A DNA stretch of 64,000 nucleotides from Sporichthya polymorpha DSM 43042. Lineage in GTDB: Bacteria; Actinomycetota; Actinomycetes; Sporichthyales; Sporichthyaceae. The notes beneath the pieces are model-generated. The model did not search any database and had not been told where the DNA came from. It saw nothing but the letters and a program-made list of their open reading frames with translations. The position numbers and the translations under genes were made by a program. Position 1 is the stretch's first letter; each line of letters begins with the position of its first letter. Below, piece by piece: positions 1-63,161 of the stretch. The DNA lies in assembly GCF_000384115.1 (NCBI RefSeq), contig NZ_KB913029.1, positions 4,749,057 to 4,813,056 of the forward strand, written 5' to 3'.

Positions 1-1010
1 CCCGGGGCGAGGAAGGTCTGCAGGAACGCGTGCCCGTTGGAGGCGGGCGGATCGCTCGGCGGATCGAGCGGCCGGTGCAAGGACCAGTCCGCCACCGGCA
101 GCGCGGTCGTCACGCCGGTGACCAGGTTGCCGAGGTCGACGCGAACCGCGTTGAGCCGGTCCAGGACCGCGCTGCGGGCGAGGGCGTAACCGAGGCCCTC
201 GCCGAAGGCCGCCAGCACCTCGCGGTCGGTCTCGTCGAGGTTGCGCTTCTGGTAGTAGCAGTCGGCGTGGAGGAACCCGACCACGCTCCCGTGCGCGACA
301 ATCGGCGCGGCGACGTAGGACCGGGACAGCGAGGTCTCCGCGATCGGCCGGTTGACGCCGGGGTTCTCCTGGGCGTCCGAGATCAGCAGCGCGGTCCCGC
401 GGCGGACCATGTCCCACTCCGGCACGCTCTCGTCGAGCACGACGGGGTTCTCCCGGCCGGCGGCGAGGATCTCCTCCGCCCACCGCGCGTCACGCCCCAC
501 GTACACCGTCTCCGGGAGCCAGCGGCCGTGGTCGATGCGCGAGACGATCGCGCGGTCGAAGCCGAGGCTGCACACCGCGACCGCGGCCTCGTTGACCAGC
601 GTCGCCGTCGCGTCGATCCGCCGGAGGGCGGCCAGCGCCTCCCGCACGCGGGCCAGAGCGGCGTCGCGCAGGAGCAGACGCTCGTCACGGATGTCGTCGT
701 CGAAGGCCTTGAGAGCGCGGAGCAGCTCGATCAGCTCGTCCGGCACCGGCCCGGACCCGTTGACGGGCGCGCCCGCCGACCCGTTCGTCCCGACCGGGTG
801 CGCTCCGAGGGCGCCGAGGAGGATCTCCCACCCGGCGGCGAGCACGTCATGGGCGGCGGCGTAGTCGACGACGAGCGCGGGGTCCCAGAGGTCGTCGCGT
901 CCCGTCAGGTCGGCGACGCGGCCCAGCAACGCGCGCAGCTGCTCGCGGCGCCCGGCGGGCAGCAGGTAGCCACGGCCGGGCCAGGGGGCACCGGGGTCCC
1001 GGGAGCGCAT
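1..1010 (-). CDS. GAF-domain transcriptional regulator, 3' end off window
   Basis: This reading frame starts with ATG at 1010 (GGAG four bases upstream) and stays open to the left edge, giving about 336 residues without a stop. The middle third is a GAF-type sensor domain: it carries DGRWLPE, SYVAAPIVAHGSVVGFLHAD and a DETDRE segment followed by a helical EGLGYAL stretch. These line up with the second-position GAF-LuxR regulators at 25291-26433 and 57225-58343, which end in a LuxR helix-turn-helix. The DNA-binding domain would lie beyond the window, so the LuxR assignment is by homology to those paralogs, not seen. It starts 28 bases after the SDR stop on the same strand and may be cotranscribed with it. 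Its ligand is unknown. Confidence 0.8.
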   Translation of the reverse strand, partial: MRSRDPGAPWPGRGYLLPAGRREQLRALLGRVADLTGRDDLWDPALVVDYAAAHDVLAAGWEILLGALGAHPVGTNGSAGAPVNGSGPVPDELIELLRALKAFDDDIRDERLLLRDAALARVREALAALRRIDATATLVNEAAVAVCSLGFDRAIVSRIDHGRWLPETVYVGRDARWAEEILAAGRENPVVLDESVPEWDMVRRGTALLISDAQENPGVNRPIAETSLSRSYVAAPIVAHGSVVGFLHADCYYQKRNLDETDREVLAAFGEGLGYALARSAVLDRLNAVRVDLGNLVTGVTTALPVADWSLHRPLDPPSDPPASNGHAFLQTFLAP

Positions 1011-1038
1011 GAACTCCACACGGGAGCTGCTCACGGCG

Positions 1039-7691: not shown

Positions 7692-8090
7692 TCAGCCCTG
7701 GGCGTCCTTCTCCGCGATCGCCTCGCGGTACATCGGGAACAGCGGCTTGGTCAGCGGGACGAGCTTGAGGATCTTGTTGACCGGGCCCTTGGCCTTGACC
7801 TCGCCCTTGGCCATGCCGACGGCGAGGTTGTACTCACCGCGCCAGAACTTGTCGGCGGTGTCGGCCTTCATCATCAGCGTCACGTCGGCCTCCTCGTCGA
7901 TCGGACCGAGGACGACCTGCATCGGGTCGCGCATGACGATGTTCATCTCGACGTCGGGGTCCGTGTAGAGGACCTTCATCACGATGCCCGCGGACTTGAA
8001 CTTCGGGCCGTTCTCCGGGTGCTCCGCGGCAGCGCGGAAGACACCACCGATGTACTTGTCGACCTCGTTGGCGTCGGCGAAGTAAGCCAT
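7692..8090 (-). CDS. SCP2 sterol-binding-fold protein
   Basis: A 132-residue single-domain protein of the SCP2 sterol transfer family. It has the alternating beta pattern of the fold and the segment FWRGEYNLAVGMAKGEVKAKGP, written here as the stretch around residues 86-106, where small hydrophobic ligands are usually held. It shares length and pattern with a second copy at 63306-63719. SCP2 proteins carry sterols or fatty acyl-CoA in the cytoplasm. Here it sits upstream of the alcohol dehydrogenase-P450 unit. AAGGAG precedes the ATG. Ligand is unknown. Confidence 0.85.
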   Translation of the reverse strand: MAYFADANEVDKYIGGVFRAAAEHPENGPKFKSAGIVMKVLYTDPDVEMNIVMRDPMQVVLGPIDEEADVTLMMKADTADKFWRGEYNLAVGMAKGEVKAKGPVNKILKLVPLTKPLFPMYREAIAEKDAQG

Positions 8091-20311: not shown

Positions 20312-21230
20312 CGGCGGCCTGGAGCGCGGTGACGCAGGCGAGGTCCACGATCTCGTCGGCGTTCGCGCCGCGCGACAGGTCGTTCATCGGGAGTGCGAGG
20401 CCCTGCAGCACGGGGCCGACCGCGACCGCCCCGCCGAGACGGGCGACGAGCTTGTAGGCGATGTTGCCGGCGTCGAGGTCCGGGAAGACCAGGACGTTCG
20501 CGGCACCGGCGACGGAGCTCCCCGGGGCCTTGGCGGCACCGACGACGGCGTCGAGGGCGGCGTCGCCCTGGAGCTCGCCGTCGATCGCGAGGTCGGGCCG
20601 CCGCTCCCCCGCGAGCGCGCAGGCCCGGCGGACCTTCTCGACCCGGGCGTGCTCCGCGCTGCCCTTGGTGGAGAAGCTGAGCAGCGCCACCCGCGCCGGC
20701 TCACCGAGCAGGGCTTCGGCACTCGCGGCGCTCGCGATCGCGATGTCGGCGAGTTGCTCGGCGGTCGGGTCGGGGACGACGCCACAGTCGGAGAAGACGA
20801 CCGTCCGGGGGCCGCCGGCAGCGTGCGGGCATTCCATGAGGAAGAAGCTGGAGACGGTCGAGACGCCCGGCGCGGGCCCGATGCCCCGGAGCGCGGCGCG
20901 CACGGTCGCCGCGGTCGTCGCCACGGCACCGGCAGCGGCTCCGTCGGCGAGACCGGCCCGGACCATCAGCGCACCGACGAGGAGCGGGTCGTCGAGCTCG
21001 GCGGCCGCGTCCTCGGCGGAGACACCGCGGGCGGTGCGGCGCTCGACATGACCCGGCGTCAGGTCGGGTCGGACCTGCTCCCGCAGTTCGGCGGTCAGCA
21101 ACACCGGCGTGCCGAGACCGTCCCCGAAAGTCTTGGCGGCGGCCTGGACGCGCGGGTCGTCCGCCTCGCAGAAGACGATCCGTGCGGGCCGGGCCGCAGC
21201 ACCGGCCCGCAGGTGCTCCGAGAGCGTCAC
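20292..21230 (-). CDS. Phosphate acetyl/acyltransferase, Pta-like domain protein
   Basis: A 312-residue PTA/PTB-family enzyme, expected to interconvert acyl-CoA and acyl phosphate. The C-terminal half is well conserved: [14 protein letters not shown], then [20 protein letters not shown]. It lacks the long N-terminal DRTGG-type region of the larger Pta enzymes. The GTG at 21230 overlaps the AtuA stop as GTGA, so the two are coupled; a longer open frame upstream runs through the AtuA gene and is not used. No acetate kinase gene is nearby. The acyl group could be acetyl or a product of the AtuA pathway. Confidence 0.85.
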
Positions 21231-23044
21231 GCGGCGGTGGCCACCAGCGCGGCCGGGACGGTGACCTCCATGGAAAGCAGGTACTGGGAGAAGGTCTTGC
21301 CCTGGGCGTCGAAGCGCAGGGAGTTCGCGCCGCCGCCGCCGAGGCTCTCGTGGAGCAGGAAGTTCAGGGCGAGCAGGTTGGGCAGTTCGAAGCGCTCGAC
21401 CTCGCCGTAGCAGATGTCCTTGAACTGCTGCTTGACCACCTCGGCGGTGATGTTGGCCTTGATCCAGTGGTAGATCTCGGGGCTGCGGGCGCGGATGCCG
21501 ACGTTGCCGGTGTCGCCCTTGTCCCCGGAGCGGCCGATGCACAGCTGCAGAAGCGGGACGGTGATGGTCTCGCCCTCGGCGGAAAGCTCCTCGAGCGGGC
21601 GGGCACTGTCGGCCGGGGTGGGCTTGTGCAGCGGGGCCACCGGGACGCGGACGTCGGTGTAGGCGGCGGCGGAGGAGGAGACCGGTTCGGTGACCCCGTC
21701 CACGGTGACGGTGGCCTTGACCGCGTCCCGGGAGATCAGCGCGGGCCAGTGGGCCACGACCTCGGCCACGCGGGGGCGGCCCTGATCGGCCGGGACGGTC
21801 ATGCCGGGCAGGGCCTGGAGCATGACGCCGACGACCATGGGGGCGAAGTGCGCCTCGATCTTGGCCTTGTCCCGGTCGCGGACACCGAACTGGATCAGGA
21901 CCTCACTGGGCTCGGTCGCGGTCAGCGAGGGGTGGGAGGCGTCCCAGCCGATGAACTGGGTCGAGGCCTCCTCATACAGGTCCTGACCGCCCGCGGCGTG
22001 CCAGAACACCTCGGCGACCTTGTTCGCCTTGCGCAGCGTGTCCGGACCCGAGAGCAGCAACCGCCCCACCGAGCGGTACCCGTCGGAGTAGGACACGGCG
22101 ACCTTGAGCAACTCGGGCGGCGGGGCGCCCACGATCCCGGAGACGCGGACCCGGTCCGGGCCCTCCTGGGTCAACTCGATCGAGTCGAAACGGGCGATGC
22201 AGTCCGGGGACAGGTACGCCGGGCCGCCCATCTCATACAGCAGCTGCTCCGAAACGGTGTGCACGGACACCAGGCCACCGGTGCCGGGGTGCTTGGTCAC
22301 CACGAACTCACCGCTGGGGTAGACCTCGACCAGCGGGTAACCCATGTTGCGGTGGTCCGGGACCAGGTGCCAGTCAGTGAAGTTCCCACCCGTGCACTGG
22401 CAGCCGCACTCGATGATGTGCCCGGCCACCACACCGGCGGCGAGCTTGTCCCAGTCATCGGGGGCCCAGCCGAAGCGGTGGATCATCGGCGCCATCGCCA
22501 CCGAGGTGTCAGTCACCCGACCGGCCACGATCACGTTCGCGCCCAGCTCCAACGCCCGCACGATCGCCGGCGCCCCGATGTAGACGTTCGCCGAGGACAC
22601 CGCGTCCCGCACGTCCGAGAGCGGCCGGCCGGTCTCCATGTTCGTCAGAACCTGACCCGAGGCCAGCAGGTCGTCCAGGTCGGAGTACAGGTCATCACCG
22701 GACACCACACCGAGCTGAACCTTGTCCCGAACCCCGAGCTCCTCGGCGAGCTTCTCCACCGCCGCCGCACACGCATGCGGGTTCACCCCACCGGCGTTCG
22801 CGATGATCGTGACGCCCTTGTCCATGCACGGCACCAGCACATCCCGCAGCTGGGTCAGGAAGTCCCCCGCGTACCCCAGCTCCGGGCGCTTGGCCTTCTG
22901 CTTCTGCAGAATCGCCATCGTCACCTCGGCCAGGTAATCCATGACCAGGTAGTCGATCGGACCACCCTCCACCTGACGCCGGGCCGCCGTGGGGTCATCC
23001 CCCCAGAACCCGCCACAGTTGGCAATGACGATCTTCTCGGTCAC
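21227..23044 (-). CDS. AtuA-like protein (DUF1446)
   Basis: A 605-residue protein of the acyclic terpene utilisation AtuA family. The N-terminal DUF1446 domain starts [14 protein letters not shown] and contains [16 protein letters not shown] and [15 protein letters not shown] short C-terminal AtuA-like domain begins near residue 500 with [16 protein letters not shown]. In Pseudomonas atu genes serve citronellol and geraniol degradation; the biochemical role of AtuA itself is not settled. GTG start with GGAGG five bases upstream. Two adjacent 10-bp repeats containing GTTAAC lie 29-48 bases before the start. It is coupled to a Pta-like acyltransferase. Confidence 0.9.
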
Positions 23045-23072
23045 GGGAACCTCCGGGTGAGACGGTGTCCGG

Positions 23073-23092
23073 CCCAGTTAACCACAGTTAAC
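23073..23092 (-). promoter_or_regulatory. Direct repeat CCCAGTTAAC-CACAGTTAAC upstream of AtuA gene
   Basis: Two adjacent 10-bp repeats differ at one position and each carries GTTAAC, itself a palindrome. They lie 29-48 bases before the GTG at 23044. Binding of one face of the helix by a dimer pair is a reasonable reading. Confidence 0.5.
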
Positions 23093-23132
23093 GTGCGCCG
23101 CCGGATGGAGCTTCTGGGAGCTTAAACACATC

Positions 23133-23160
23133 CGCCCGCCGGCGAGAAAGCCGGCGGGCG
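23133..23160. terminator. Hairpin terminator after the AveC-like gene
   Basis: CGCCCGCCGGC and GCCGGCGGGCG form a perfect 11-bp stem with a GAGAAA loop, 21 bases after the stop at 23181 on the minus strand. On that strand a short GTGTTTAAG follows rather than a full U tract. Confidence 0.65.
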
Positions 23161-23180
23161 AACGTACCAACTATCGGTCG

Positions 23181-24065
23181 TCAGACGACGGGGGCGGCGA
23201 TCTGCTCGATACGACTCGTCGGCGAGAGCGACGGCGCCCGGCCCTCGAGCTCGGCGAGCCGCTGGACCGCGAACAGCGCCTGGCTAGTCCAGTACAGGCC
23301 GGCCGCCGCGAGGCCGATGCTGACCGGAGCCATGGCCCACATGACCGCGGTCGAGGGGTTCGGAGCGTTCATCGCCACCAGCGTCGGGAATCCGGCGCCC
23401 AGGCACTCGAAGGCGAAGTTCGCCGGGAACACCAGAAAGACGATCAGGTTGTGCTGCCACTTGGTGGCCCGCAGCTTGATCACCGCGCACAGCACCGCGA
23501 AGCCGGTGATCTGCGCGCACTCCATGAAGGCGATGAACAGCGGGTAGTTGAGGAAGCGCATCGGCGCCTCCCCGTAGTAGGTGTACAGGCCAGAGTTCAC
23601 CGCGATGGTCTCGAACAGCGCCGTCGTGAATGCGGTCAGCGCCGCGTACTGGTAAATCTTCTTGAGCGTCACACCGCCGGCGAACGTGCGGTACAGGAGG
23701 ACCGCCGGCAACGCGAACACGACGACGTAGGCCGGCATCACCCAGACCGGCTGCGGCAAGCCGAAGGACGTGAAGAGCGTCCACTGCGGTCCGTTGCCCT
23801 CGGGATCCGCGCCGAGCCAGTGCAGGTGGTACGTGATGTCGTAGATGGGCTCGAAGATGCTGCCCGCGGCGACGGCCAGGACGATGAACACAGGAAGCGG
23901 CGAGCGCTCCTGGCGGCCGATCCGGGCGGCGTAGATGAGCAGGGCGATCGTGCCCGCCCACAGGCCGACGGTGGCGATGGTCTGCATGACCTCGTTGAGG
24001 TCACGGGTGTAGGTCTCTGGCGCGGGGAGCGGGATCGGTCCCGCGTCGCCCTGGAATCGGATCAT
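23181..24065 (-). CDS. AveC-like (spirocyclase family) multipass membrane protein, module A
   Basis: A 294-residue integral membrane protein with about seven hydrophobic segments. Conserved points are FEPIYD after the second segment, QPVW before the third, and a block containing TYYG, NYP and a Glu (LYTYYGEAPMRFLNYP). These match the general pattern of the AveC spirocyclase family, from memory, in which the avermectin member forms a spiroketal. A homolog lies at 59570-60430. It is transcribed away from a tandem pair of GAF-LuxR regulators, 80 bases apart. The short GAGAGAGG before ATG is a weak ribosome site. Enzymatic activity is inferred from family only. Confidence 0.7.
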   Translation of the reverse strand: MIRFQGDAGPIPLPAPETYTRDLNEVMQTIATVGLWAGTIALLIYAARIGRQERSPLPVFIVLAVAAGSIFEPIYDITYHLHWLGADPEGNGPQWTLFTSFGLPQPVWVMPAYVVVFALPAVLLYRTFAGGVTLKKIYQYAALTAFTTALFETIAVNSGLYTYYGEAPMRFLNYPLFIAFMECAQITGFAVLCAVIKLRATKWQHNLIVFLVFPANFAFECLGAGFPTLVAMNAPNPSTAVMWAMAPVSIGLAAAGLYWTSQALFAVQRLAELEGRAPSLSPTSRIEQIAAPVV

Positions 24066-24096
24066 CGCTGCCTCTCTCCGGGTCGGGGCCCTTGAA

Positions 24097-24114
24097 CGTT
24101 AATGCCCGTTATCG
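24097..24114. promoter_or_regulatory. CGTTA repeats between AveC-like gene and GAF-LuxR pair
   Basis: CGTTAATG and CGTTATCG repeat with a 10-base step in the 80-base divergent region. Their position lets them control both directions. They resemble the GTTAAC repeats before the AtuA gene. Confidence 0.45.
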
Positions 24115-24145
24115 CGCTGAGGCGTCCTCCTGAAGTCGTAATCCC

Positions 24146-25294
24146 ATGAGTCTTCGGGGATACTTCCGACGTATGGAGCCCCCACCGGCTGCGGCCGCCC
24201 TGAAGCTCGTTGGCCGGGTTCGAGTTCTGCTCGCGACGTCCGGTCGGTCGGACGCCGTCGAGGTCGTCGAGGCGGCCGCGGGCCTGGAGTCCACCGCCCA
24301 GCAGCTGGTCGCTCAGTTACGGGCCGCTAACCCCGCGGACCCGCAAACGGTCGCGGCCGCGGGGCGTGCCCTGACCGAGGTCACCCGGCTGCGGGCGCAT
24401 CTGATCGAATCCACGGTGCAACGCCGGTTCGCCACCCTGCCGCGGATTCACGAGAGCCTGTCCCGCCTGCGGCGCATCGCCGACGTCCGGCACCTGCTGG
24501 AAGCCGCGGCCGAGGAGCTCGCCCGATGTTGCGACTTCGACCGCACGGTGATCTCACGCCGGCGTGGGTCGACCTGGCAGGCCGCAGCGATCTGGATCAG
24601 CCCAGAGGTCGATCCCCGCGTCGCCGCCGAGACCCGGGCATACCTGACACGGCAGTGGATTCCTCTGCGTCCGGGCACGTTGGAGAGCGACCTGGTGCAC
24701 CGGCGGACCGCTGCGGTCATTTCAGCGACGGATCCGCGGGTCGATCGCGACCTGGTCGCCGCCACCTACAGCTCCGCCTACGTCGCATCTCCGGTGATGC
24801 CGAGCGGCGAGGTCATTGGGTTTCTCCAGGTGGACTGTTCGCTCGGTCGCCGAGTGTTGACGGAGGTCGACCGCGACAACCTCTGGACCTTCGCCGAGGG
24901 ATTCGGCCTCATCTTCGAACACGTCGCACGCCTGGAGCGGCTGCAGGCGCAGCGAGAACGCGTGCACTCCGCCTTCGCCACGGCCGAGCAGGAACTTGCC
25001 GCGCTCAACTCCGCCGAGCTGATGCTCGTCGGCCGCGAATTGGAGTCACTCGGCGTCACTTCCGGCGCAGAAACGGCGAGTGACGCACCGTCGGACACTC
25101 CTCTCTCCCGCCGCGAACGCGAGGTGATGGAACTGATCGTCACCGGGGCGGGCAATTTGGAGATTGCGGAGCGCCTCTTCCTGTCCGAGGCGACGGTGAA
25201 GGCGCACGCGACTCGGATCTACCGCAAGCTCGGCGCGACCGGCCGCGCCGACGCCGTGGCTCGCTATCTGCGCCGCCTGCAAGGTACGACGTGA
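24146..25294 (+). CDS. GAF-LuxR transcriptional regulator, first of tandem pair A
   Basis: A 382-residue regulator with a GAF sensor domain at about 95-260 and a LuxR/FixJ helix-turn-helix at about 320-375 ([25 protein letters not shown], with [15 protein letters not shown]). The GAF part holds [31 protein letters not shown] and [14 protein letters not shown]. It is very close to the first gene of pair B at 58327, sharing long identical blocks such as [14 protein letters not shown]. No receiver domain is present, so it should answer to a small ligand. Start may be ATG 24146 or ATG 24173. Its stop overlaps the next gene by GTGA. Confidence 0.9.
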
Positions 25295-26433
25295 GCACCT
25301 CGGGCGATCCGGCCGAACGTCGGGCGGCGTTGATCTCCGCTGCCCACTCGCTGCACAATCGAGCCCGCGCGCTCCTCGGCAGCAGAGCAGACCCGGCGCG
25401 CCGACCGGACGAAGCCCCGGACCTCGAGTCACTGACCGAGACGTGCCTGGCCGCGCTCGGCTCCCCCGGCGCCGACGTCGTCGGTCTCGGCAGGGTCGTC
25501 GCAGATGCGCAACGAATAGCTCTGCTGCTCCGTGAGCACGACCTGGTCAGCGGAGTCTCCCGGCTGGCCAGGGCGGAGCAAGGCCTCGCCCGACTCCGCG
25601 CTTGCCCGTCCACCGCCACGCTCCTCGCCGAGGTGTGCCCCGAGGTGACCCGGAGCTGCGGATTCGCGCGCGTGCTGCTGTCCCGGGTGGAGGACGGCCG
25701 ATGGCTCCCCTGGCAGGTCAACGATGCTGTCGCCGGTGAACCCTGGGTCGCTGCCTGGAGCATGAACTCCATCCCGCTGGACGAATCGATCCGCGAGACA
25801 CAGCTCCTGCGTGAGCACAGAGCGGCGCTCGTGAACGATGTGACCGCACCCGACATCCACCCGATCATCCGCGAAGGGCGGTCCCACTCCTACGTCGTCG
25901 CCCCGATCGTGCCCGCCGGGCGGGTGCTCGGCTTTCTGCACGCCGACCACGAGGCGGAGAGCCGCGCCTGCGACGAGACGGATCGCGACATCCTCGGTCG
26001 CTTCGCGGAAGGGTTCGGCCATCTCTACGAGCGCACGGCCCTGCTCGAACAGATGCGCGCGCGGCGAGGACGCGTGCGCGAACTGCTCGCGTCCGTCGAC
26101 CGGGCGCTGTTGGACCTGACCGAGGCCGAGCTCGAACTGGGGACGCCGACGTCAGCGACCGCGACGCCGGTTCGCGCACTTCGGGAGCCGCCGCCGGAAC
26201 TCACACCACGGGAGACCGAGGTGCTCGAGCTGATCGTGGCCGGCGCCAGCAACCGCGAGATAGCGGCGCGACTGGTGGTGGGTGAGGGAACGGTCAAGAC
26301 CCATGTGAAGCGCATCTTCGCCAAGCTCGGCAATCTGAACCGGGCTCAGGTGATTGCGCGTTACGCGGCAGCGGAGCCCCCGCGCGTAAACGCATCTGGC
26401 CGCCGACCCCGAGGGGTCGGCGGCCAGAGATGA
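25291..26433 (+). CDS. GAF-LuxR transcriptional regulator, second of tandem pair A
   Basis: A 380-residue regulator with GTG start inside the stop of the preceding paralog. The GAF domain spans about 100-260 with [27 protein letters not shown] and [17 protein letters not shown]. The C-terminal LuxR helix-turn-helix is [20 protein letters not shown] through [14 protein letters not shown]. It is a different subtype from its partner and matches the second gene of pair B (57225) and the partial gene at 1-1010. The two may work as a heterodimer; that is inference. The final codons form the hairpin 26395-26428. Confidence 0.9.
26395..26428. terminator. 16-bp hairpin inside the end of the GAF-LuxR gene
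   Basis: TCTGGCCGCCGACCCC pairs perfectly with GGGGTCGGCGGCCAGA, with a two-base GA centre. It ends two bases before the TGA at 26431, so it is made from the last 11 codons. It separates two convergent genes; no U tract. Confidence 0.75.
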
Positions 26434-26442
26434 CCGTTCGGC

Positions 26443-27825
26443 TCAGGCGTTACGGGCCGCAGCGAGGCGGGTGAACATGAAGTGCCCGCCGAGAACCGTG
26501 ATTCCCGCGAGAACGAGCATGGCGTAGAGCCACTCGCTACCGTCGCCGGTCTGACCCGGCTTCACCGAGAACCCGAGGCTGCGGACGACGTCACCCGAGA
26601 CCGGAGCGGCACCCGGCAAGGTCTGAACACCGGTGTCGGTGACCAGCGCGAGCGTGGACGGGACCTCAGCCGCCTGCGCGGCCAGGTCGTCGGGCAGGCC
26701 GGCGACAGCCGGCAGAGCCGTGTCCACGGCTGCCGCGTCGGTGGTGCTGTTGGTCCCGCTGCCGGAGGCCGATCCGGCGCTGCTGTCGGAGGTGCCGGCC
26801 GAGGTGGTCCCGGCACTGGCGGCGTAACCGAGCTTGGCGAACGAGGCGCCAACCTTGGCGCGGCCCAGGATGTAGGTGATCTCGAAGTTGCCGGCACCGG
26901 TGGGGCTGGCCTGGGTGGTGGTGACCATCAGGCCGCCGATGGTGTACGTCGTCTTCCCGGTCTCGTCCTTGTCGGTGAGAACCGGGGCCAGCTCGAGCTT
27001 GATGCCGGCGTTCTTGAGGACGTCGTTGGCCTGGGCGATGGCCTGCTTGCTGTCCTGGCCCTGGCCGAGGTAGCGGAAGCCGTTCTGGTCGAAGCCGAAG
27101 TCCTGGCCGTTGACCGAGAACCGCCCGAAGGTCTTGGCCTCGATCTTCGGAGCGCCACTGACCGCCTGGGTGATGGACGCCAGCGCCGTGGAGTTGCCGA
27201 CCTCGAGCGGACCGGAGACGAACCCGGCCGAGCTGCCGGAGGCAACGGCGGTGACGCTGTTGCCCTTGGCCTCCGTACTGGCGTTCGCGCTCTGCTGCTG
27301 GTTGGGTGCGGGGACGTTCGGCGGTGCGCCGTAGGCCGCCGAGGCGGAGGAAGCCGTGTCGGTGCTCGTGGACTTGATACGCCCGTAGCCGAAGTCTTCC
27401 GAGGCCTCCTGGGTGGCGTTGGAGGCGGTCTGGACGTAGCCGGGCAGGACGGCGAAGGGGATCTGGACCTGACCGGCGCCGAACTGGTTCGGGATGCCGT
27501 TGGCCGTGCCCGGCAGGGTCTGCACGGTGTTGCCCCAGTAGGGCATGCCCGCGAAGCCCTGGCTGCCGCCGGAGTTGGTGGTCTGCGCCGAGGCGGTGAG
27601 CGAGCCGGCGTCGTTCTTCGGGGACGCCGGGATCTCGTCGCCGTTGACCTCGAAGTAGAACGCGTCACCGCGGGCTTCGAGGTTGTAGCGGGTGTCCTCC
27701 GCCGAGGCGGATCCGGGCAGGGCGATCACTGCGGCGGACGCGCCGACGGCGCCCAGGGTGCCGAGCGCGGTCAGGGCCAGGGCCCAGCGGGGGGCGCGGT
27801 TCCGGGTGCTCATGCGGGCGGTCAT
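26443..27825 (-). CDS. Secreted, C-terminally anchored protein of the ABC transporter operon
   Basis: A 460-residue protein of no known family. A signal peptide is seen at about 1-42 (basic start, then LALTALGTLGAVGASAAVIAL and a SASA cleavage region). The exported body is rich in Ser, Thr, Ala, Gly and Gln and looks beta-rich and repetitive. A Ser/Thr/Gly linker (about 345-375) precedes a C-terminal hydrophobic helix WLYAMLVLAGITVLGGHFMF ending in RLAAARNA, like a membrane or wall anchor without an LPxTG motif. It overlaps the LivF-like stop as ATGA, so it is coupled to the transporter. It may act at the surface in substrate handling; that is unproven. Confidence 0.75.
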   Translation of the reverse strand: MTARMSTRNRAPRWALALTALGTLGAVGASAAVIALPGSASAEDTRYNLEARGDAFYFEVNGDEIPASPKNDAGSLTASAQTTNSGGSQGFAGMPYWGNTVQTLPGTANGIPNQFGAGQVQIPFAVLPGYVQTASNATQEASEDFGYGRIKSTSTDTASSASAAYGAPPNVPAPNQQQSANASTEAKGNSVTAVASGSSAGFVSGPLEVGNSTALASITQAVSGAPKIEAKTFGRFSVNGQDFGFDQNGFRYLGQGQDSKQAIAQANDVLKNAGIKLELAPVLTDKDETGKTTYTIGGLMVTTTQASPTGAGNFEITYILGRAKVGASFAKLGYAASAGTTSAGTSDSSAGSASGSGTNSTTDAAAVDTALPAVAGLPDDLAAQAAEVPSTLALVTDTGVQTLPGAAPVSGDVVRSLGFSVKPGQTGDGSEWLYAMLVLAGITVLGGHFMFTRLAAARNA

Positions 27826-57224: not shown

Positions 57225-58343
57225 TTATCCGCGATTCACATCGCTCGCGACTCTCCCCAGATAGTGCGCGATCGCCTGGGACCGGTTCGAGGCCCCCAGT
57301 TTCGCCAAGATGTGCTTCACGTGCACCTTCACCGTGCCCTCGCTCATCACCAGCCGCTCCGCGATCTCCGCGTTACGCGCCCCACTGGCGACCAGTTCGA
57401 GCACCTGGCGTTCCCGGCCGGTGAGCGCCGCCAGCCGGTCGTCCAACACGGCCGCGGCGGGCGCGATCGGCGGAACGGGGTCGGCGCCGAGGGCGGCCGT
57501 GAGCTCGATCGCCGACTCGGTCAGTTGCTCGGTCGTCGCGTTGAGCACGGCCAGCAGGTCCCGGAGTTGCTGCTGCTGCAGCCGCATGCTCTCCAGCAGC
57601 GCCGTCCGCTCGTACAGGTGCCCGAAGCCTTGGGCGAATCGGCTCAGGACGTCCCGATCGGTGGCGTCGCAGGCCGGTCCGTCCGGGCCGTGGTCGCCGT
57701 GCAGCAGGCCGATCACCGTCCCGGCCGGGGCAATGGGAGCAACCACGTACGGCGGCCCGGACGGCCATCCCGGAGCGGCCCCCGTCCGGTCCTGAACCAG
57801 GACCGCCCGGCTCTCGGCGACCACCCGGCCCTCGGGGCCGACGCGCGGACGCAGCACGAGCACCCGACCACGCAACTCCTGCCACGGGTCATCGGCGCCG
57901 GCGTGGACGATCCACGGCACCCACGCCCCCTCCTCGACCCGCGACAGCACCACGCGCTGCAGGCCGCAGCTGCGCGCGACCTCGGCACCCGCCCGGTCGA
58001 GCAGGTCCGCCGTGTACGGCGCCCCCCGCAGCCGGGCCAACCCTCGCTCGCACTGGGCCAGGCGCAGATGTCGGTCGGCGAGCTCCTGCCGACGCAGCTG
58101 CGCGTACGTCTCCTGCAGATCAGCGAACGCGCCGGCCAGCGCGGGATCCGCGTCTCCGCTCGCCGCCAGCCGCGCCAGGCAGCGATCGCTCAGCTCCGCC
58201 GCCGCCTCCGACAACGCGGTGGCGACGGCGCCCGACGGGGTGACCGGGAAGTCCGCTCCGATCACCTCCGCAAGGCCGCGCAGCCGGGTCACCACTGCGG
58301 AGTACGCGCGCCGGTTGCGACCGACGTCAGGGGGCGGCGGCAC
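57225..58343 (-). CDS. GAF-LuxR transcriptional regulator, second of tandem pair B
   Basis: A 372-residue regulator from GTG 58343 (GGAG seven bases upstream). An earlier GTG at 58385 is in frame but would overlap the first pair gene by 59 bases, so the shorter form is preferred. The GAF domain has EEGAWVPWIV, YVVAPIAPAGTVIGLLHGDH and [23 protein letters not shown]. The C-terminal LuxR helix-turn-helix is LTGRERQVLELVASGARNAE with TVKVHVKHILAKLGASN. It matches the second gene of pair A, sharing [13 protein letters not shown]. Confidence 0.9.
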   Translation of the reverse strand: MPPPPDVGRNRRAYSAVVTRLRGLAEVIGADFPVTPSGAVATALSEAAAELSDRCLARLAASGDADPALAGAFADLQETYAQLRRQELADRHLRLAQCERGLARLRGAPYTADLLDRAGAEVARSCGLQRVVLSRVEEGAWVPWIVHAGADDPWQELRGRVLVLRPRVGPEGRVVAESRAVLVQDRTGAAPGWPSGPPYVVAPIAPAGTVIGLLHGDHGPDGPACDATDRDVLSRFAQGFGHLYERTALLESMRLQQQQLRDLLAVLNATTEQLTESAIELTAALGADPVPPIAPAAAVLDDRLAALTGRERQVLELVASGARNAEIAERLVMSEGTVKVHVKHILAKLGASNRSQAIAHYLGRVASDVNRG

Positions 58344-59451
58344 GACCGCGCTCCAGCAGGAGGAATCGGGAGACCGCCTCGGCACGGTTCGCCGCCTTGA
58401 GCTTGTGCGTCACCCGGCTGACGTGGGCCTTGACCGTCGACTCACTGATCACCAGCCGCTCGGCGATGTCGGTGTTCCGCGCTCCCGCCACCATGAGCTC
58501 GAGGACCTCGCGCTCACGGCGGCTGAACATCGGCACCGCGCCGGCCGGTCCCGTGCTCTCCGTCCCCGCCGGCCGCGGTCGTTCCCGCCGCGCCAGCAGC
58601 AGCTCCGCCGAACTCAGCTCGGCAAGATTGCGCTCGGCGGCCACGAACGCCTCGCGCAGGTGCGCGCGCTGCTGGTCCAGCCGCTGCGAGAGCACCAGGT
58701 GCTGGAAGATGAGCCCGAAGCCCTCCGCGAACGTCCAGAGGTTGTCCCGGTCGTGGTCGGTGAGCTCGCGACTGCCGACCCAGCGGTCGCCCTGCAGGAA
58801 CCCGATCACCTCCCCGCTCGGCATCACCGGAGAGGCGATGTAGCCGACGCTCTCGGCCGCCTCGACGAGCTCGCGGTCGACACCGGCGTCCTGGGCGGAG
58901 ACCAGCGCGGCGCACCGGCGTCGCACCAGGTCGTTCTCCAAGGTCCCCGCCCGGAGCGGGATCCACTGCTCGGTGAGGTACGCCCGCGTGCGGGCGGCGA
59001 CGTCGGGATCGACGCCGGGTGAGATCCACACGGCCTCGGCTCGCCACGTGGAGCCGCGTCGTCGACTGACCACCGTGCGGTCGAGATCGCAGCAGTGCGC
59101 GAGTTCGGCGGCGGCAGCCTCGAGCAGCTCGCCGACGTCGGGAATCGCCCGCAGGCGGCCGAGGCTCTCGTGAATCCGGTCGACGGCCGCGAAGCGGCGC
59201 GAGACCGCGTCCTCGGCCAGGTCCGCCCCGGCCCGCGTGAGGTCGGCGAGGGCTCGCCCCAGCGCTCCAAGGTCCATCCCGGGCGCTGCCGGGCGGCGCA
59301 GGACCGCGGCGAGCTTCGCCGTCGTGTCCTCCAGCGCGTCGGTCAACCGACGCCGCCCGGCCCGGTCCTGTCGTCCGCCCCCGGCCAGCGCGGCCGCCGC
59401 CCGCTCGCGGAGCTCGGCGGCCTGCTCCAGCAGCAGCGCCAGGGACGTCAT
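58327..59451 (-). CDS. GAF-LuxR transcriptional regulator, first of tandem pair B
   Basis: A 374-residue regulator. The GAF domain (about 95-260) has [37 protein letters not shown] and [14 protein letters not shown]. The C-terminal LuxR helix-turn-helix is FSRREREVLELMVAGARNTD with TVKAHVSRVTHKLKAANRAE. It is very close to the first gene of pair A and stands in the same position, divergent from an AveC-like membrane protein gene. It overlaps its partner gene, so both should be made together. Confidence 0.92.
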   Translation of the reverse strand: MTSLALLLEQAAELRERAAAALAGGGRQDRAGRRRLTDALEDTTAKLAAVLRRPAAPGMDLGALGRALADLTRAGADLAEDAVSRRFAAVDRIHESLGRLRAIPDVGELLEAAAAELAHCCDLDRTVVSRRRGSTWRAEAVWISPGVDPDVAARTRAYLTEQWIPLRAGTLENDLVRRRCAALVSAQDAGVDRELVEAAESVGYIASPVMPSGEVIGFLQGDRWVGSRELTDHDRDNLWTFAEGFGLIFQHLVLSQRLDQQRAHLREAFVAAERNLAELSSAELLLARRERPRPAGTESTGPAGAVPMFSRREREVLELMVAGARNTDIAERLVISESTVKAHVSRVTHKLKAANRAEAVSRFLLLERGRAAAP

Positions 59452-59509
59452 GGCGACGTTTCTACCACTAATGGCTACCTAAATCGGCACGGTAGGGAGA
59501 GGCCGGCAT

Positions 59510-59525
59510 GTTTATCACGATTTAC
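59510..59525 (+). promoter_or_regulatory. GTTTATCnnnATTWAC box upstream of AveC-like gene B
   Basis: GTTTATCACGATTTAC lies 45-60 bases before ATG 59570. It matches the box at 18564-18579 at 12 of 16 positions, including all of GTTTATC and ATT.AC. Confidence 0.45.
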
Positions 59526-59569
59526 CGTTGACCGTCCGCCGTTCCGGGCCAATCGTCAAAGGAGATCGA

Positions 59570-60430
59570 ATGGGTGCTGTACCCGAGGAGGTCATGCAGC
59601 GCGAGCTGGACATGGCCTGGCAACACGTCTTCACGTGGGGCAGCTACGGGATCACCGTCGCGATGCTGGTGTGGGCCTTCTACCTCGGCCGCGCCCACCG
59701 CACCTCCTTCTACGTGCTGGCGTCGCTCGGTGTGTTCATCGGCGCCTTCGCCGAGCCGATCTACGACGTCCTGTTCGACCTCTGGTTCTACGACGTGCAC
59801 AACGGCGAGGGCGGCGCGATGTACTCGCACTTCACCGCCTTCGAACGCGTGCAGCCGGTGTGGACGCACAGCGGTTACCTGATCCTCTACGCGGGCCCGG
59901 TGCTCTACGCGGGTTGGAAGATGTACCAGGGCCTGGCGACGCCCAAGTTCCTGTTCGGGATCTGGGGCGTCGAGATCGTCACCTCCTGCGTCTTCGAGGT
60001 GATCGGCACCGGGACGAACGTCTACACGTACTACGGCCCGTACGAGATGCGGATCTGGAACTACCCGTTGGTGATCGGCGTCCTCGAGGGCACGCAGACC
60101 ATCCTGTTCACGGTGCTGGCCGTCAACCTGTGGCGCCGCATCAAGTCCGGATGGGGCATGGCGAGCCTGCTGTACGCGCACCCGTTCACGATGTTCGGCA
60201 CCAACGTCGGCATCGGCGCCCCGCTGATCGTGGCACTGCACCTCGACGACGAGGGTGGCGTCACCTTCGCGAGCGAACTGGTCTGGGTCGCCACGTTCCT
60301 CGTGTACGGCCTGTGTGCCTTGGCCGTCCTGGGCGCGACGAAGTTCCTGCCCGAGCCGCTGGATCCGGCCGAGGAGCCGACCGGCCGCCGCCGGGACGCG
60401 GCTCCGCACCGGGAGAGTGTCGGGGTCTGA
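59570..60430 (+). CDS. AveC-like (spirocyclase family) multipass membrane protein, module B
   Basis: A 286-residue membrane protein with about seven hydrophobic segments. Conserved with the module A copy: AEPIYD, QPVW, TYYG followed by NYP and a Glu. ATG 59570 with AAGGAG seven bases upstream is chosen over an in-frame start 42 bases earlier. It is divergent from the two GAF-LuxR genes of pair B, 118 bases apart. A transmembrane enzyme acting on a hydrophobic metabolite is likely from the family, but the reaction is unknown. Confidence 0.7.
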   Translation: MGAVPEEVMQRELDMAWQHVFTWGSYGITVAMLVWAFYLGRAHRTSFYVLASLGVFIGAFAEPIYDVLFDLWFYDVHNGEGGAMYSHFTAFERVQPVWTHSGYLILYAGPVLYAGWKMYQGLATPKFLFGIWGVEIVTSCVFEVIGTGTNVYTYYGPYEMRIWNYPLVIGVLEGTQTILFTVLAVNLWRRIKSGWGMASLLYAHPFTMFGTNVGIGAPLIVALHLDDEGGVTFASELVWVATFLVYGLCALAVLGATKFLPEPLDPAEEPTGRRRDAAPHRESVGV

Positions 60431-60497: not shown

Positions 60498-63161
60498 TCA
60501 GCGCACCAGGTCTGCCAGGTCCGAGCGGCGGGAGATGCCGAGCTTCGCGTAGATCCGCTGCAGGCGGTTGTCGATGGTCCGGACGGAAAGCTGCAGTTCC
60601 TCGGCGATCTCGCGATTCGTCCGGCCCGACACCGCCAGCAGCGCAGTCTCCCGCTCCGCCGGGGTGAGGGGCTCGCGGGTCGACAGCGCCATCAGGGCCG
60701 GGGTCGAGGCACCCGGGCAACTCCGCGCGAACGCCGCCGCCCGCTGGGACTCGCGGGCGGCGCGCTGGCCGCGGCCCGCGCGCTCCCACACACCCGCCGC
60801 GTCGGCCGCCGCCTCGGCCGCGAGCAGCGCGGCCCCGAGCCGGTCGAACTCCGTCGCCGCGCGCTCGAGCGCCTCGCCGTCGCCCTCGACGAGAGCGTCG
60901 ACGTGCCGGCACCGGGCCGGCGCGAGCTCGCCGCCGAGGTCGGCCGCGAGGGCACGCAGCCGCGGCGCCACGGGCTTCGGATCGCCCAGTCGCGCGATGT
61001 CGTGCAGGGCCGCCGCCGCCCCGACGAGGTCGCCGATGCGCTCGCCGATCGCGGCCGCCTCGGCCAGTTCCTCGCGCGCGGCGCCGAGCCGCCCCTCGGC
61101 CGCCGCCGCCCAGCCGCGGGCGGCCGCGTGCTCGGTCGCGCTCCACTGCGGTGGGTCGACACCGAGCGCGTCCGCCGCGACCAGCGCACTGGTCGCGCCG
61201 CGGAAGTCACCGCCCAACGCCAGCGCGAGCGCGAGCGTGGACCGCAGGCTGTGCTCGAAACCGCGACGCCCGATCCGGTGCAGGAGGGTGATCGCCTCAC
61301 GCGCCGCGCGCGCCGCGCCCTCGACGTCGCCGCGTTCCCGGACCGTGCGCGTCAGGTGCCAGAGGAAGTACGCCCGCGCCTCACTGCTGCCCTCGGCGAG
61401 GCCGCGCTCGTACTCCGCCCGCGCGAGCGCCTCCGCCTCGGCGTACCGGCCGGCGTGCGCGAGCGCCTCGCAGCGGGTGAACAGGTAGAACCACGGATAC
61501 CAGTCCCCCGGTCCCAGCTCGGTGGCGGCGGCGTACCCCTCGGCCGACCCCTCGAGCGCCGTGTCGATCCGCCCGAGCCGGCCGAGTCCGTACGCCTCGA
61601 CGAGGCGGAGCCACGACGCCGTCAGCGGGTCCGCGTGCGGAGCGAGCGCGGCGGCCGCCTCCGCCGCCGGCCCGGGGCCGGAGTTCGACAGCAGCAGACC
61701 CGGGCGCCGAGCTGAGACCTTGACGCGCAACTCGGGGTCGCAGATCGCCTCCTCCGCCCGGTCGGCGACATGCAGCCCTTCCCCGGCCCGGCCGAGCTGC
61801 ATCCAGAGGCACTCGATGTGGACGACCGCCAGCTCCGCCCGTTCGGCGTCCGTGCGCGCGAACTCGACGAGCACCGCGAGTTCGTCGACGGCGTCCTCGG
61901 GCCGTCCCTGCAGGGAAACGGTCTGCGCGGCGAGCAGACGGGCCTCGAAGCCCGCGCCGGCGTCGACCGCCGCCCGCGCGAGGCGCTCGGCCAGGGCGAA
62001 GTCGTACCGCCAGCGCGCCGCGACCGCCGCCTGCAGCAGCCGGTCCGGGTTCGTACCGCCGCCACCCTCCATGCGCCAGATGCCGACGCGCAGCACATCG
62101 TCGCTCCGCCGTGCACCGGCCGCCTCGACGGCGTCGGCGAGCTGACGTGCCATCACGCCGCGGCGCACCGCCGAGGTGTGTCGCCGGACCACGTCGGCGT
62201 ACACCGGGTGGGCGACCCGTAGCTGCAGGCGGCGCTCGTCCCGCTCGCACACGACCAGGCCGTGCTGCTCCAGTGTCTCGACGGCGTCCAGCCCCCCGGC
62301 CATCTCCAGCTCGCGGCTGCCGAGCGGCTCCGCGTACGCGGCGAGCCGGAGCAGGTCCAGGGCCGCGGGGTCGAGGTCACGGAGGCGTGCGTCGACGAGC
62401 TCCACCAGGCGGTCGGACGGCGCCAGCGCGGCCCGCAGCCGCCAGAGGCCCTCCTCCGCGACGAGCGTCCCGTCGGCCAGGGCGCCGAGTACGAGCTCAC
62501 GCAGGAACAGCACGTTGCCGCCGCTGCGCGTCGTGAACTCGACGACGGCGGCCGGGTCGACCGGCGCCCCCAGCGCGCCGGTGAGCAGGGCCTCGACCGC
62601 CTCGTGCTCCAACTGCGCGAGCTGGACGCGGTCGGCGAGGTCGTCCTTCCAGAGCGAGGTCACGGCGTCCGGCAGACGCTCGCCGCTGCGGACGGTCGCC
62701 ACCACGAGCACCGTGTCCGTGGCGACCAGTTGGTGGATCAACCCGGCCGACGGCTCGTCGAGCAGCTGCGCGTCGTCGACGAACAGCACCAGCGGGCGAC
62801 CCTTCGCCCGTTCCACCAGCTGCACCGCCGCCCGCCGCAGGAGGTCCTGCAGGGTGTCGGTCGCGGCGGAGCCCACGGCATCCGGGAGCAGGGCCGCGAA
62901 GACACCGAGCGGTGTGCGTGCGCTCGAGTGGGTCGCCGTCACCCAGAGCGTCGAACGGCCCACTCCTTCGGCCAGCCGGCGGGCCTCGCGGGCGAGCCGG
63001 GTCTTGCCGACACCCGCCGGGCCGACCAGGACGACGCTGCGAGCGCGCGGCCCGCGGAGGGCCTCACGCACCTTCTCGATCTCGCGATCGCGTCCGGAGA
63101 GCGGCCACGCCCGGCCGGCGAGGAGGTCGACGCGTGCCGCCTGCGGGTCCGTCGTCACCAC
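60498..63161 (-). CDS. LAL-type LuxR regulator with ATPase domain
   Basis: An 887-residue large ATP-binding LuxR regulator. Walker A is GPAGVGKT at residues 47-54 and Walker B is LVLFVDDAQ near 125. The middle is a long helical TPR-like region. The C-terminal helix-turn-helix is LTPAERETALLAVSGRTNREI with VRTIDNRLQRIYAKLGISRRSDL. Such MalT-like proteins switch on target genes after binding ATP and an inducer. ATG or GTG start at 63161. It stands between module B and the SCP2-acyl-CoA dehydrogenase genes and might control either. Confidence 0.93.
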   Translation of the reverse strand: MVTTDPQAARVDLLAGRAWPLSGRDREIEKVREALRGPRARSVVLVGPAGVGKTRLAREARRLAEGVGRSTLWVTATHSSARTPLGVFAALLPDAVGSAATDTLQDLLRRAAVQLVERAKGRPLVLFVDDAQLLDEPSAGLIHQLVATDTVLVVATVRSGERLPDAVTSLWKDDLADRVQLAQLEHEAVEALLTGALGAPVDPAAVVEFTTRSGGNVLFLRELVLGALADGTLVAEEGLWRLRAALAPSDRLVELVDARLRDLDPAALDLLRLAAYAEPLGSRELEMAGGLDAVETLEQHGLVVCERDERRLQLRVAHPVYADVVRRHTSAVRRGVMARQLADAVEAAGARRSDDVLRVGIWRMEGGGGTNPDRLLQAAVAARWRYDFALAERLARAAVDAGAGFEARLLAAQTVSLQGRPEDAVDELAVLVEFARTDAERAELAVVHIECLWMQLGRAGEGLHVADRAEEAICDPELRVKVSARRPGLLLSNSGPGPAAEAAAALAPHADPLTASWLRLVEAYGLGRLGRIDTALEGSAEGYAAATELGPGDWYPWFYLFTRCEALAHAGRYAEAEALARAEYERGLAEGSSEARAYFLWHLTRTVRERGDVEGAARAAREAITLLHRIGRRGFEHSLRSTLALALALGGDFRGATSALVAADALGVDPPQWSATEHAAARGWAAAAEGRLGAAREELAEAAAIGERIGDLVGAAAALHDIARLGDPKPVAPRLRALAADLGGELAPARCRHVDALVEGDGEALERAATEFDRLGAALLAAEAAADAAGVWERAGRGQRAARESQRAAAFARSCPGASTPALMALSTREPLTPAERETALLAVSGRTNREIAEELQLSVRTIDNRLQRIYAKLGISRRSDLADLVR

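What the first reader, a model, noticed from the sequence alone, without database searches (positions are those of the whole stretch)
23181..26433. Module A: AveC-like membrane protein divergent from an ordered pair of GAF-LuxR regulators
The membrane protein and the two regulators are arranged divergently with only 80 bases between, and the same three-gene arrangement recurs at 57225-60430. The two regulators are of different subtypes and always in the same order, with overlapping genes. This looks like a sensor-effector cassette in which an AveC-like enzyme or carrier makes or moves a ligand that GAF pairs read. It matches no named system known to me.
Basis: partly seen in the sequence, partly recalled or inferred. 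Interest (0 to 1): 0.85.

Follow-up and report, generated by a model that had tools for sequence, protein, structure and literature searches.

The report
Paired sensor-regulators beside AveC-like membrane proteins
A soil-type actinobacterium carries two old copies of a small gene set, a membrane protein distantly related to the avermectin enzyme AveC next to a fixed pair of two different sensor-regulators, and the same set recurs in distant relatives, so it is probably a self-contained switch for handling some unknown oily molecule.

Summary
Module A (23181-26433) and module B (57225-60430) share one anatomy: a membrane protein ("Ave") divergent from two overlapping GAF-LuxR genes, R1 then R2. 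R1A/R1B share 61% identity, R2A/R2B 47%, AveA/AveB 28%.

Beyond the window, R1>R2 is an old, order-fixed pair: 39 of 41 tandem GAF-LuxR pairs in the stretches I fetched are R1>R2, none is reversed. Ave lies beside the pair at 8 loci in 5 genomes of two classes; three genomes (this one, a Frankia, a Patulibacter) each hold one A-type and one B-type trio. Orientation varies.

Against a strict cassette: 31 of 39 pairs lack an Ave neighbour, only 8 of 21 close Ave loci touch a pair, and a same-genus relative keeps AveA with the A pair cleanly absent.

Best reading: a two-subunit GAF-LuxR regulator that senses a hydrophobic metabolite and controls Ave, a membrane enzyme or carrier remotely related to AveC. 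Subunit contact, ligand, target and activity are inferred; "Ave makes the ligand" is untested. Nine library searches found no paper on the pair or trio.

The parts
23181..24065 (-). AveA: 294-aa membrane protein, remotely related to AveC
   Evidence: ORF; no Pfam or NCBIfam match; AF2 pLDDT 72, pTM 0.74, seven helices of 20 or more residues; A-type Ave clade
24066..24145 (.). 80-bp divergent gap between AveA and R1A; presumed shared promoter region
   Evidence: ORF coordinates; the consensus scan of 23000-26600 found no sigma-70-like promoter
24146..25294 (+). R1A: type-1 GAF-LuxR regulator, 382 aa
   Evidence: GerE 70.7 bits, GAF 26.5 bits, both above cut-off; R1 clade
25291..26433 (+). R2A: type-2 GAF-LuxR regulator, 380 aa, overlaps R1A by 4 bp
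   Evidence: GerE 59.4, GAF 30.0 bits; R2 clade; AF2 pLDDT 81: N-terminal helices, GAF fold, long helix, HTH
26395..26428 (.). perfect 16-bp inverted repeat with 2-nt loop at the 3' end of R2A, before a convergent gene; role unknown
   Evidence: the repeat finder I5; the terminator scan did not list it
57225..58343 (-). R2B: type-2 GAF-LuxR regulator (longest ORF starts at 58385)
   Evidence: GerE 68.6 bits; GAF 20.4 bits, under the 22.4 cut-off; start choice
58327..59451 (-). R1B: type-1 GAF-LuxR regulator, 374 aa
   Evidence: GerE 67.6 bits; GAF 20.3 bits, under cut-off; 61% to R1A
59452..59569 (.). 118-bp divergent gap of module B; holds a dyad CTACC-N11-GGTAG at 59475-59495, which may be chance
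   Evidence: 1 in 64 kb, 0.05 expected, but the dyad was picked by eye; one of 10 five-base dyads shared by two of the compared loci, none by three; also at unrelated places in other loci
59570..60430 (+). AveB: membrane protein, 286 aa from ATG (TTG 59528 possible)
   Evidence: ORF, start; 64-65% to a protein on seven Rhodococcus plasmids; B-type clade
3..1034 (-). orphan GAF-LuxR, runs off the window start; no partner beside it
   Evidence: 37% to R1A; ortholog in the relative G298
21227..23044 (-). AtuA-family protein directly downstream of AveA on the same strand
   Evidence: Pfam AtuA 499.9 bits; 92% conserved in G298

Best explanation
Modules A and B are two old paralogous copies of a recurring actinobacterial module. 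R1 and R2 are made together and act as one two-subunit transcription factor (inferred from fixed order, overlapping or abutting genes and matched divergence). Their GAF domains sense a small hydrophobic metabolite, R2 through residues of its own (inferred). The complex binds the gap between the genes and switches on the neighbouring Ave gene (inferred). Ave is a membrane enzyme or carrier of a branch remotely related to AveC, acting on isoprenoid-, steroid- or polyketide-like molecules during their uptake or breakdown (inferred). Shown here: gene anatomy, duplication, fixed pair order, recurrent Ave association in two classes, co-occurrence by genome and replicon, a probable remote homology to AveC. 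Not shown: DNA binding, ligand, oligomer, activity.
For: Trio at 8 loci in 5 genomes: window A and B, L074, L109, L110, L112, L024/L244 and L225; L225 in Patulibacter is divergent like the window. Flanks differ (AtuA, ABC genes; DUF222, MDMPI; LMW-phosphatase, MIP, glyoxalase; chromate transporter, LysR, MFS; Mce-type proteins, acyl ligase), so the trio looks autonomous. R1>R2 in 39 of 41 tandems, 0 reversed; R1 and R2 clades hold the same 26 loci; R1-R2 distances correlate, r 0.891, 0 of 5000 permutations as high, 14 non-redundant loci. Close Ave genes (E<=1e-80) in 11 of 393 genomes, all 11 among the 23 with R matches. In the Patulibacter order 4 of 201 genomes have Ave (E<=1e-30), all 4 among the 25 with R (in two of them the Ave is of a distant type). 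8 of 8 plasmid records with AveB relatives also carry R relatives. Three genomes hold one A-type and one B-type trio each. Usual context: beta-oxidation genes, Mce-type lipid import, AtuA.
Against: 31 of 39 R1>R2 loci have no Ave in the fetched stretch. 13 of 21 close Ave loci have no pair beside them (some on short contigs). In G298, syntenic with the window up to AveA, the A pair is cleanly missing while AveA is 94% conserved. Ave adjacency needs 6 changes on the Ave tree and is not clustered. AveA is kin to the Frankia L112 Ave, yet an R1 clade of these two loci is rejected, p-AU 0.00027, so the three genes did not always travel together. No operator shared by both modules, no promoter-like site in A. 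The r of 0.891 is partly species kinship.
Confidence: 0.5

Rival explanations
1. Passenger reading: R1-R2 is a general regulator pair of catabolic gene clusters, and Ave is merely one of many catabolic genes that cluster with it, without special coupling.
For: 31 of 39 R1>R2 loci lack Ave; pairs on a Rhodococcus plasmid and in Frankiaceae sit by SnoaL-type genes (53-59% to window gene 17542 at three of four loci, 34% at the fourth), acyl ligase, ALDH and TetR genes; the own genome has 7 further Ave places without pairs, some in surroundings that look catabolic by eye.
Against: Adjacency occurs in unrelated surroundings including ones with no evident catabolic theme, in three arrangements, and A- and B-type trios recur together in three genomes.
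Confidence: 0.25
2. One reading: Ave makes or moves the ligand that the GAF pair senses, a closed sensor-effector loop.
For: Recurrent adjacency and genome-level co-occurrence; AveC itself is an enzyme acting on hydrophobic polyketide intermediates (PMC13303154, abstract and passages).
Against: Most pairs that I saw have no Ave neighbour; AveA persists without the A pair in G298; nothing here bears on the ligand.
Confidence: 0.12
3. Ave is a membrane partner that holds R1-R2 inactive or relays a membrane signal, so that the trio is a membrane-coupled regulator rather than a regulator plus target.
For: Three-gene unit in varied surroundings; the Ave model gave no confident match among solved folds.
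Against: The remote AveC relation points to an enzyme; Ave genes exist far from pairs.
Confidence: 0.08

Closest known systems
AveC / AveC_like family (Pfam PF17198)
   Same: Collinear remote similarity with aligned motifs DPLYN/EPIYD, PLLW..Y/QPVW..Y, E..Y.Y
   Different: No PF17198 match in either window protein; the own genome has three separate over-cut-off PF17198 places
GAF-domain regulators of hydrocarbon catabolism, e.g. DfdR of Rhodococcus (seen only as a reference title in PMC6099782; paper not held)
   Same: GAF-like sensor domain in a transcriptional regulator; the cited title reports sensing of dibenzofuran and hydrophobic aromatics
   Different: Membership untested; I do not recall DfdR as half of an ordered two-subtype pair
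Large ATP-binding LuxR activators of catabolism such as TpdR (PMC6099782, passages)
   Same: LuxR HTH activator of a catabolic operon in an actinobacterium
   Different: 788 aa, MalT-like NTP-binding domain, single gene
Two-component LuxR/NarL response regulators
   Same: GerE/NarL-type HTH
   Different: No receiver domain match; GAF in its place; no histidine kinase in the trio

Membership tests
AveC_like (PF17198) | match to the curated profile above its cut-off (26.6 bits) | tested here: not met
   0 matches for AveA and AveB by hmmscan; the genome scan at E<=10 finds four other places, not these
AveC superfamily in the wide sense | collinear remote homology to PF17198 members | tested here: inconclusive
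   hhalign probability 78%, P 1.9e-5, 165 columns in local mode; global mode found nothing
AveC superfamily in the wide sense | spiroketal cyclase or dehydratase activity | not testable with these tools
   needs an assay
LuxR/GerE HTH regulators (PF00196) | C-terminal GerE domain over cut-off 23.5 | tested here: met
   59.4-70.7 bits in all four
GAF-domain regulators (PF01590) | GAF domain over cut-off 22.4 | tested here: met
   met by R1A 26.5 and R2A 30.0; R1B 20.3 and R2B 20.4 fall just short; R2A model matches GAF structures, e.g. 3oov TMt 0.76
Response regulators of two-component systems | N-terminal receiver domain | tested here: not met
   no receiver domain among Pfam matches at E<=0.1
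Acyl-homoserine-lactone LuxR quorum regulators | autoinducer-binding domain | tested here: not met
   no autoinducer-binding Pfam match at E<=0.1; Foldseek does list SdiA and RhlR for R2A, with rmsd above 20 A across both domains

The most novel reading that the evidence does not exclude
R1-R2 is an obligate two-subunit one-component regulator, a class spread over at least two actinobacterial classes and not yet named, in which the two GAF subtypes read different ligands or states and R2 uses an invariant H-x-D-H site; the A- and B-type trios together form one circuit in which an AveC-related membrane enzyme converts a membrane-borne molecule into the signal that the pair reads.
Probability: 0.15. 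Interest if true: 0.8.

Novelty: new variant of a known kind. Interest (0 to 1): 0.5.

Why it matters
If right, actinobacteria use an order-fixed pair of distinct GAF-LuxR subunits as a recurrent switch, and one branch of it is dedicated to an uncharacterised membrane protein family remotely related to AveC. That would give a handle on proteins that are annotated as hypothetical (the plasmid relatives), and possible biosensors for hydrophobic molecules. It also makes testable why two non-interchangeable GAF subunits are kept in one order across two classes.

Tried and rejected
Membership in PF17198: not met in direct tests. Known fold for Ave: Foldseek best E 0.34; VIA-align best Z 6.7, to 7-helix receptors, which the tool's note says may mean only a common arrangement for helical bundles; no claim. 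Shared operator: among 16 upstream regions 10 five-base dyads were shared by two loci each and none by three; CTACC..GGTAG was one of them, with different spacing in window B (N11) and Protofrankia L023 (N7), absent from module A, and also present at unrelated places in five other loci, copies not counted. I keep it only as a note. Sigma-70-like promoter in 23000-26600: none. Adjacency as a clustered trait on the Ave tree: not so, 5 changes in 24 rows, 6 in 26 rows. Trio as a strictly co-inherited unit: the R1 test rejects it (p-AU 0.00027); R2 is undecided (p-AU 0.17 for A with L112, 0.23 for A with B and L074). The phylum sample gave Ave in 2 of 296 genomes, so class and order samples followed. 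Literature: searches listed no paper that I could recognise as about the pair or trio; I opened passages of PMC8784404, PMC13303154, PMC3466318, PMC6099782, PMC6498646 and PMC6678751 and judged the rest by title and abstract. The 2012 LuxR census of Actinobacteria holds the term GAF 0 times in its main text (PMC3466318).

Rows dropped before counts: L022, L023, L025 left out of the R tree as copies of L110, L109, L111, and regulators matching under 70% of the model, among them the window orphan. own_o4, o5, o7, o8 and two G055 rows left out of the later Ave trees as long or distant; L180, L181, L183 left out as near copies. One search used 14 and one search used 29 chosen loci of those held. 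Regulators more than 1 kb apart on a strand (L229, L235, L241) or singly placed were not counted as tandems; L244 not counted apart from L024. In the Patulibacter order I fetched only 18 regions round R matches out of 67 listed, strongest first in the main.
Full report
1. What is there. The window lies at G000:C1:4749057-4813056 of an unnamed 5.5 Mb genome. Its order holds only 5 genomes in the collection. I would guess Sporichthya from memory; that was not tested. Module A has AveA (23181-24065, minus), an 80-bp gap, R1A (24146-25294, plus) and R2A (25291-26433, plus; 4-bp overlap). Module B is the same set on the other strand: R2B and R1B on minus (57225-59451), AveB on plus, starting most likely at ATG 59570. 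Genes correspond one to one: R1A-R1B 61%, R2A-R2B 47%, AveA-AveB 28%, while R1 and R2 of one module share 31-36%. All four regulators carry a GerE HTH; GAF is over Pfam's cut-off in R1A and R2A and just under it in R1B and R2B. The AF2 model of R2A (pLDDT 81, pTM 0.62) shows N-terminal helices, a GAF domain, a long helix and the HTH, and matches GAF structures.

2. Is it chance? In the own genome 9 places encode Ave-family proteins. Of 28 matches to R1A only five reach into the GAF part, and all five lie within 60 kb: the two pairs and one orphan at the window start. Both pairs sit beside an Ave gene; by coordinates the other 7 Ave places do not lie beside any of the five.

3. Ave and AveC. 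Neither Ave protein matches a Pfam or NCBIfam model. The AveC_like family PF17198 has three over-cut-off places elsewhere in this genome. A local profile comparison of 12 Ave-family proteins with those three gives probability 78%, P 1.9e-5, collinear over 165 columns, with EPIYD against DPLYN, QPVW..Y against PLLW..Y and a shared E..Y.Y region; the global mode gave nothing. A remote AveC relation is likely but not proven. The AF2 model of AveA (5 sequences, pLDDT 72, pTM 0.74) has seven helices of 20 or more residues and no confident match among solved folds.

4. The regulator pair. A tree of 80 such regulators puts the first genes (R1) and the second genes (R2) in two clades that hold the same 26 loci (the deepest splits are weakly supported, 86/64 and 71/49). 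In all 26, R1 lies upstream of R2 on the same strand (at L110 a masked stretch lies between). Stretches from the order of Patulibacter add 13 more. Two further tandems, the second one on the M. paragordonae plasmid (L034) and one in L240, have both genes assigned to one type. Hence, of 41 tandems (same strand, under 1 kb apart), 39 are R1>R2 and none is reversed (recount, which sees 38 of the 39; the masked L110 is the other). Two R2-R1 neighbours lie farther apart on one strand, 1.7-1.9 kb (L229, L235), between separate pairs or genes. The loci include close copies. On 14 non-redundant loci R1 and R2 distances correlate with r 0.891, and none of 5000 permutations reaches this; species kinship contributes. 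In 21 rows of each type, P140, W141, W152, H217, H220 and R263 (R2A numbering) are invariant in R2 and variable in R1; W138 and D219 are invariant in both; D228 and H244 stand in 20 of 21 R2 rows where R1 mostly has T (21 of 21) and L (18 of 21). So the subtypes are real.

5. The trio elsewhere. Protofrankia and Patulibacter belong to Actinomycetes and Thermoleophilia. The Ave tree splits these into an A-type clade (100/99; AveA, L112, L225 and three others) and a B-type clade (100/100; AveB, L022, L023, L024, L074 and nine others) (which warns that these two clades meet on long branches). This genome, the Frankia and the Patulibacter therefore each hold one A-type and one B-type trio. A quick tree places R2A with L225's R2 and R2B with L024's R2, with support of only 83 and 81.

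6. Co-occurrence. In 393 genomes of the class, close Ave genes (E<=1e-80) occur at 17 loci in 11 genomes, and all 11 are among the 23 genomes with R matches at E<=1e-45. One further genome, G543, has only a weak Ave match and no R match. In 201 genomes of the Patulibacter order, 4 have Ave at E<=1e-30 and all 4 are among the 25 with R matches; in two of them (G764, G821) the Ave lies outside the A- and B-type clades. Of 72,556 plasmid records 8 hold an AveB relative, 7 Rhodococcus and 1 Mycobacterium; all 8 also appear in the R search. In the two plasmids that I measured the nearest pair lies about 35 and 37 kb away, and Mce-type genes stand near the Ave gene. The searches scored only a limited number of candidates per genome, so counts are lower bounds; related genomes are not independent, and I give no p-value.

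7. Results against a fixed cassette. 31 of 39 R1>R2 loci have no Ave in the fetched stretch. Of 21 close Ave loci (17 in the class sample, 4 in the other at E<=1e-50) only 8 touch a pair; some of the rest lie on short contigs. In the same-genus genome G298 the contig is 88-96% identical to the window up to exactly the AveA start, apart from about 1 kb at 78%; AveA is kept (94%), and the next 2.4 kb, the A pair, is absent with no significant remnant; the gene beyond is found at 47%. AveA's kin is the Frankia L112 Ave, but an R1 clade of the same two loci is rejected, p-AU 0.00027; R2 is undecided, p-AU 0.17. So Ave and the pair have been separated or rejoined more than once.

8. Context. Around module A: AtuA, phosphate acetyl/butyryl transferase, a SnoaL protein, a branched-chain-type ABC transporter. 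Around module B: carboxyl transferase, biotin carboxylase, acyl ligase, acyl-CoA dehydrogenase, aldehyde dehydrogenase, MDMPI-domain proteins, DUF222 and a MalT-like regulator. Pairs without Ave on Rhodococcus plasmids and in Frankiaceae sit beside SnoaL-type, acyl ligase, ALDH and TetR genes. In contrast the Frankiaceae B-type trio L109 is flanked by LMW-phosphatase, MIP and glyoxalase genes, and the divergent Patulibacter trio by chromate transporter, MFS and LysR genes, while the other Patulibacter trio sits by an acyl ligase, a luciferase-like monooxygenase and MlaD/Mce-type proteins. The trio is thus not tied to one neighbourhood, which favours a self-contained unit.

9. Mechanism. The fixed order, overlap and matched divergence fit two subunits of one regulator. 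The GAF domains suggest small-molecule sensing; lipid-catabolic surroundings and the AveC relation suggest a hydrophobic molecule. The simplest circuit is that R1-R2 sense such a molecule and activate Ave and themselves from the shared gap. DNA binding, oligomer state, ligand and activity of Ave are all inferred. I found no operator common to both modules.

10. Novelty. GAF-LuxR proteins and AveC relatives are known kinds. The two-subtype, order-fixed pair and its recurrent link to an unnamed AveC-related branch did not appear in nine library searches, which cover open-licence papers only. I rate it a new variant of a known kind.

Noticed in passing
window 3-1034 (-), continuing upstream: Orphan GAF-LuxR with no partner and no Ave beside it; its ortholog in G298 (L174 2470-3741) lies at about the same distance (22 kb) from AveA.
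   Followed up: partly
window 60498-63161 (-): MalT-like AAA-LuxR regulator, 887 aa, next to AveB; 95% identical beside module B's ortholog in G298 (L074).
   Followed up: no
window 24066-45800: Synteny with G298 is mostly 88-96% up to 24066 and again 94% from 45789, but 68-81% or absent between, as if this stretch had been exchanged in one lineage.
   Followed up: partly
L139-L145 (own genome): Seven further Ave paralogs; one lies directly beside a true PF17198 gene (L144). Some neighbours look like P450 and ABC transporter genes by eye.
   Followed up: partly
L227, L229, L235, L238 (G663, G827): Patulibacter and a relative carry many GAF-LuxR genes (9 R matches each, the scoring limit), some as neighbouring double pairs.
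   Followed up: partly
L243 9094-10836: Two different Ave genes head to head in G827 without a regulator pair beside them; the nearest listed R match is about 53 kb away.
   Followed up: no
L176 (G299): An A-type Ave lies near relatives of the MalT-like gene that flanks module B (72%) and of the small window gene 7692-8090 (39%).
   Followed up: no
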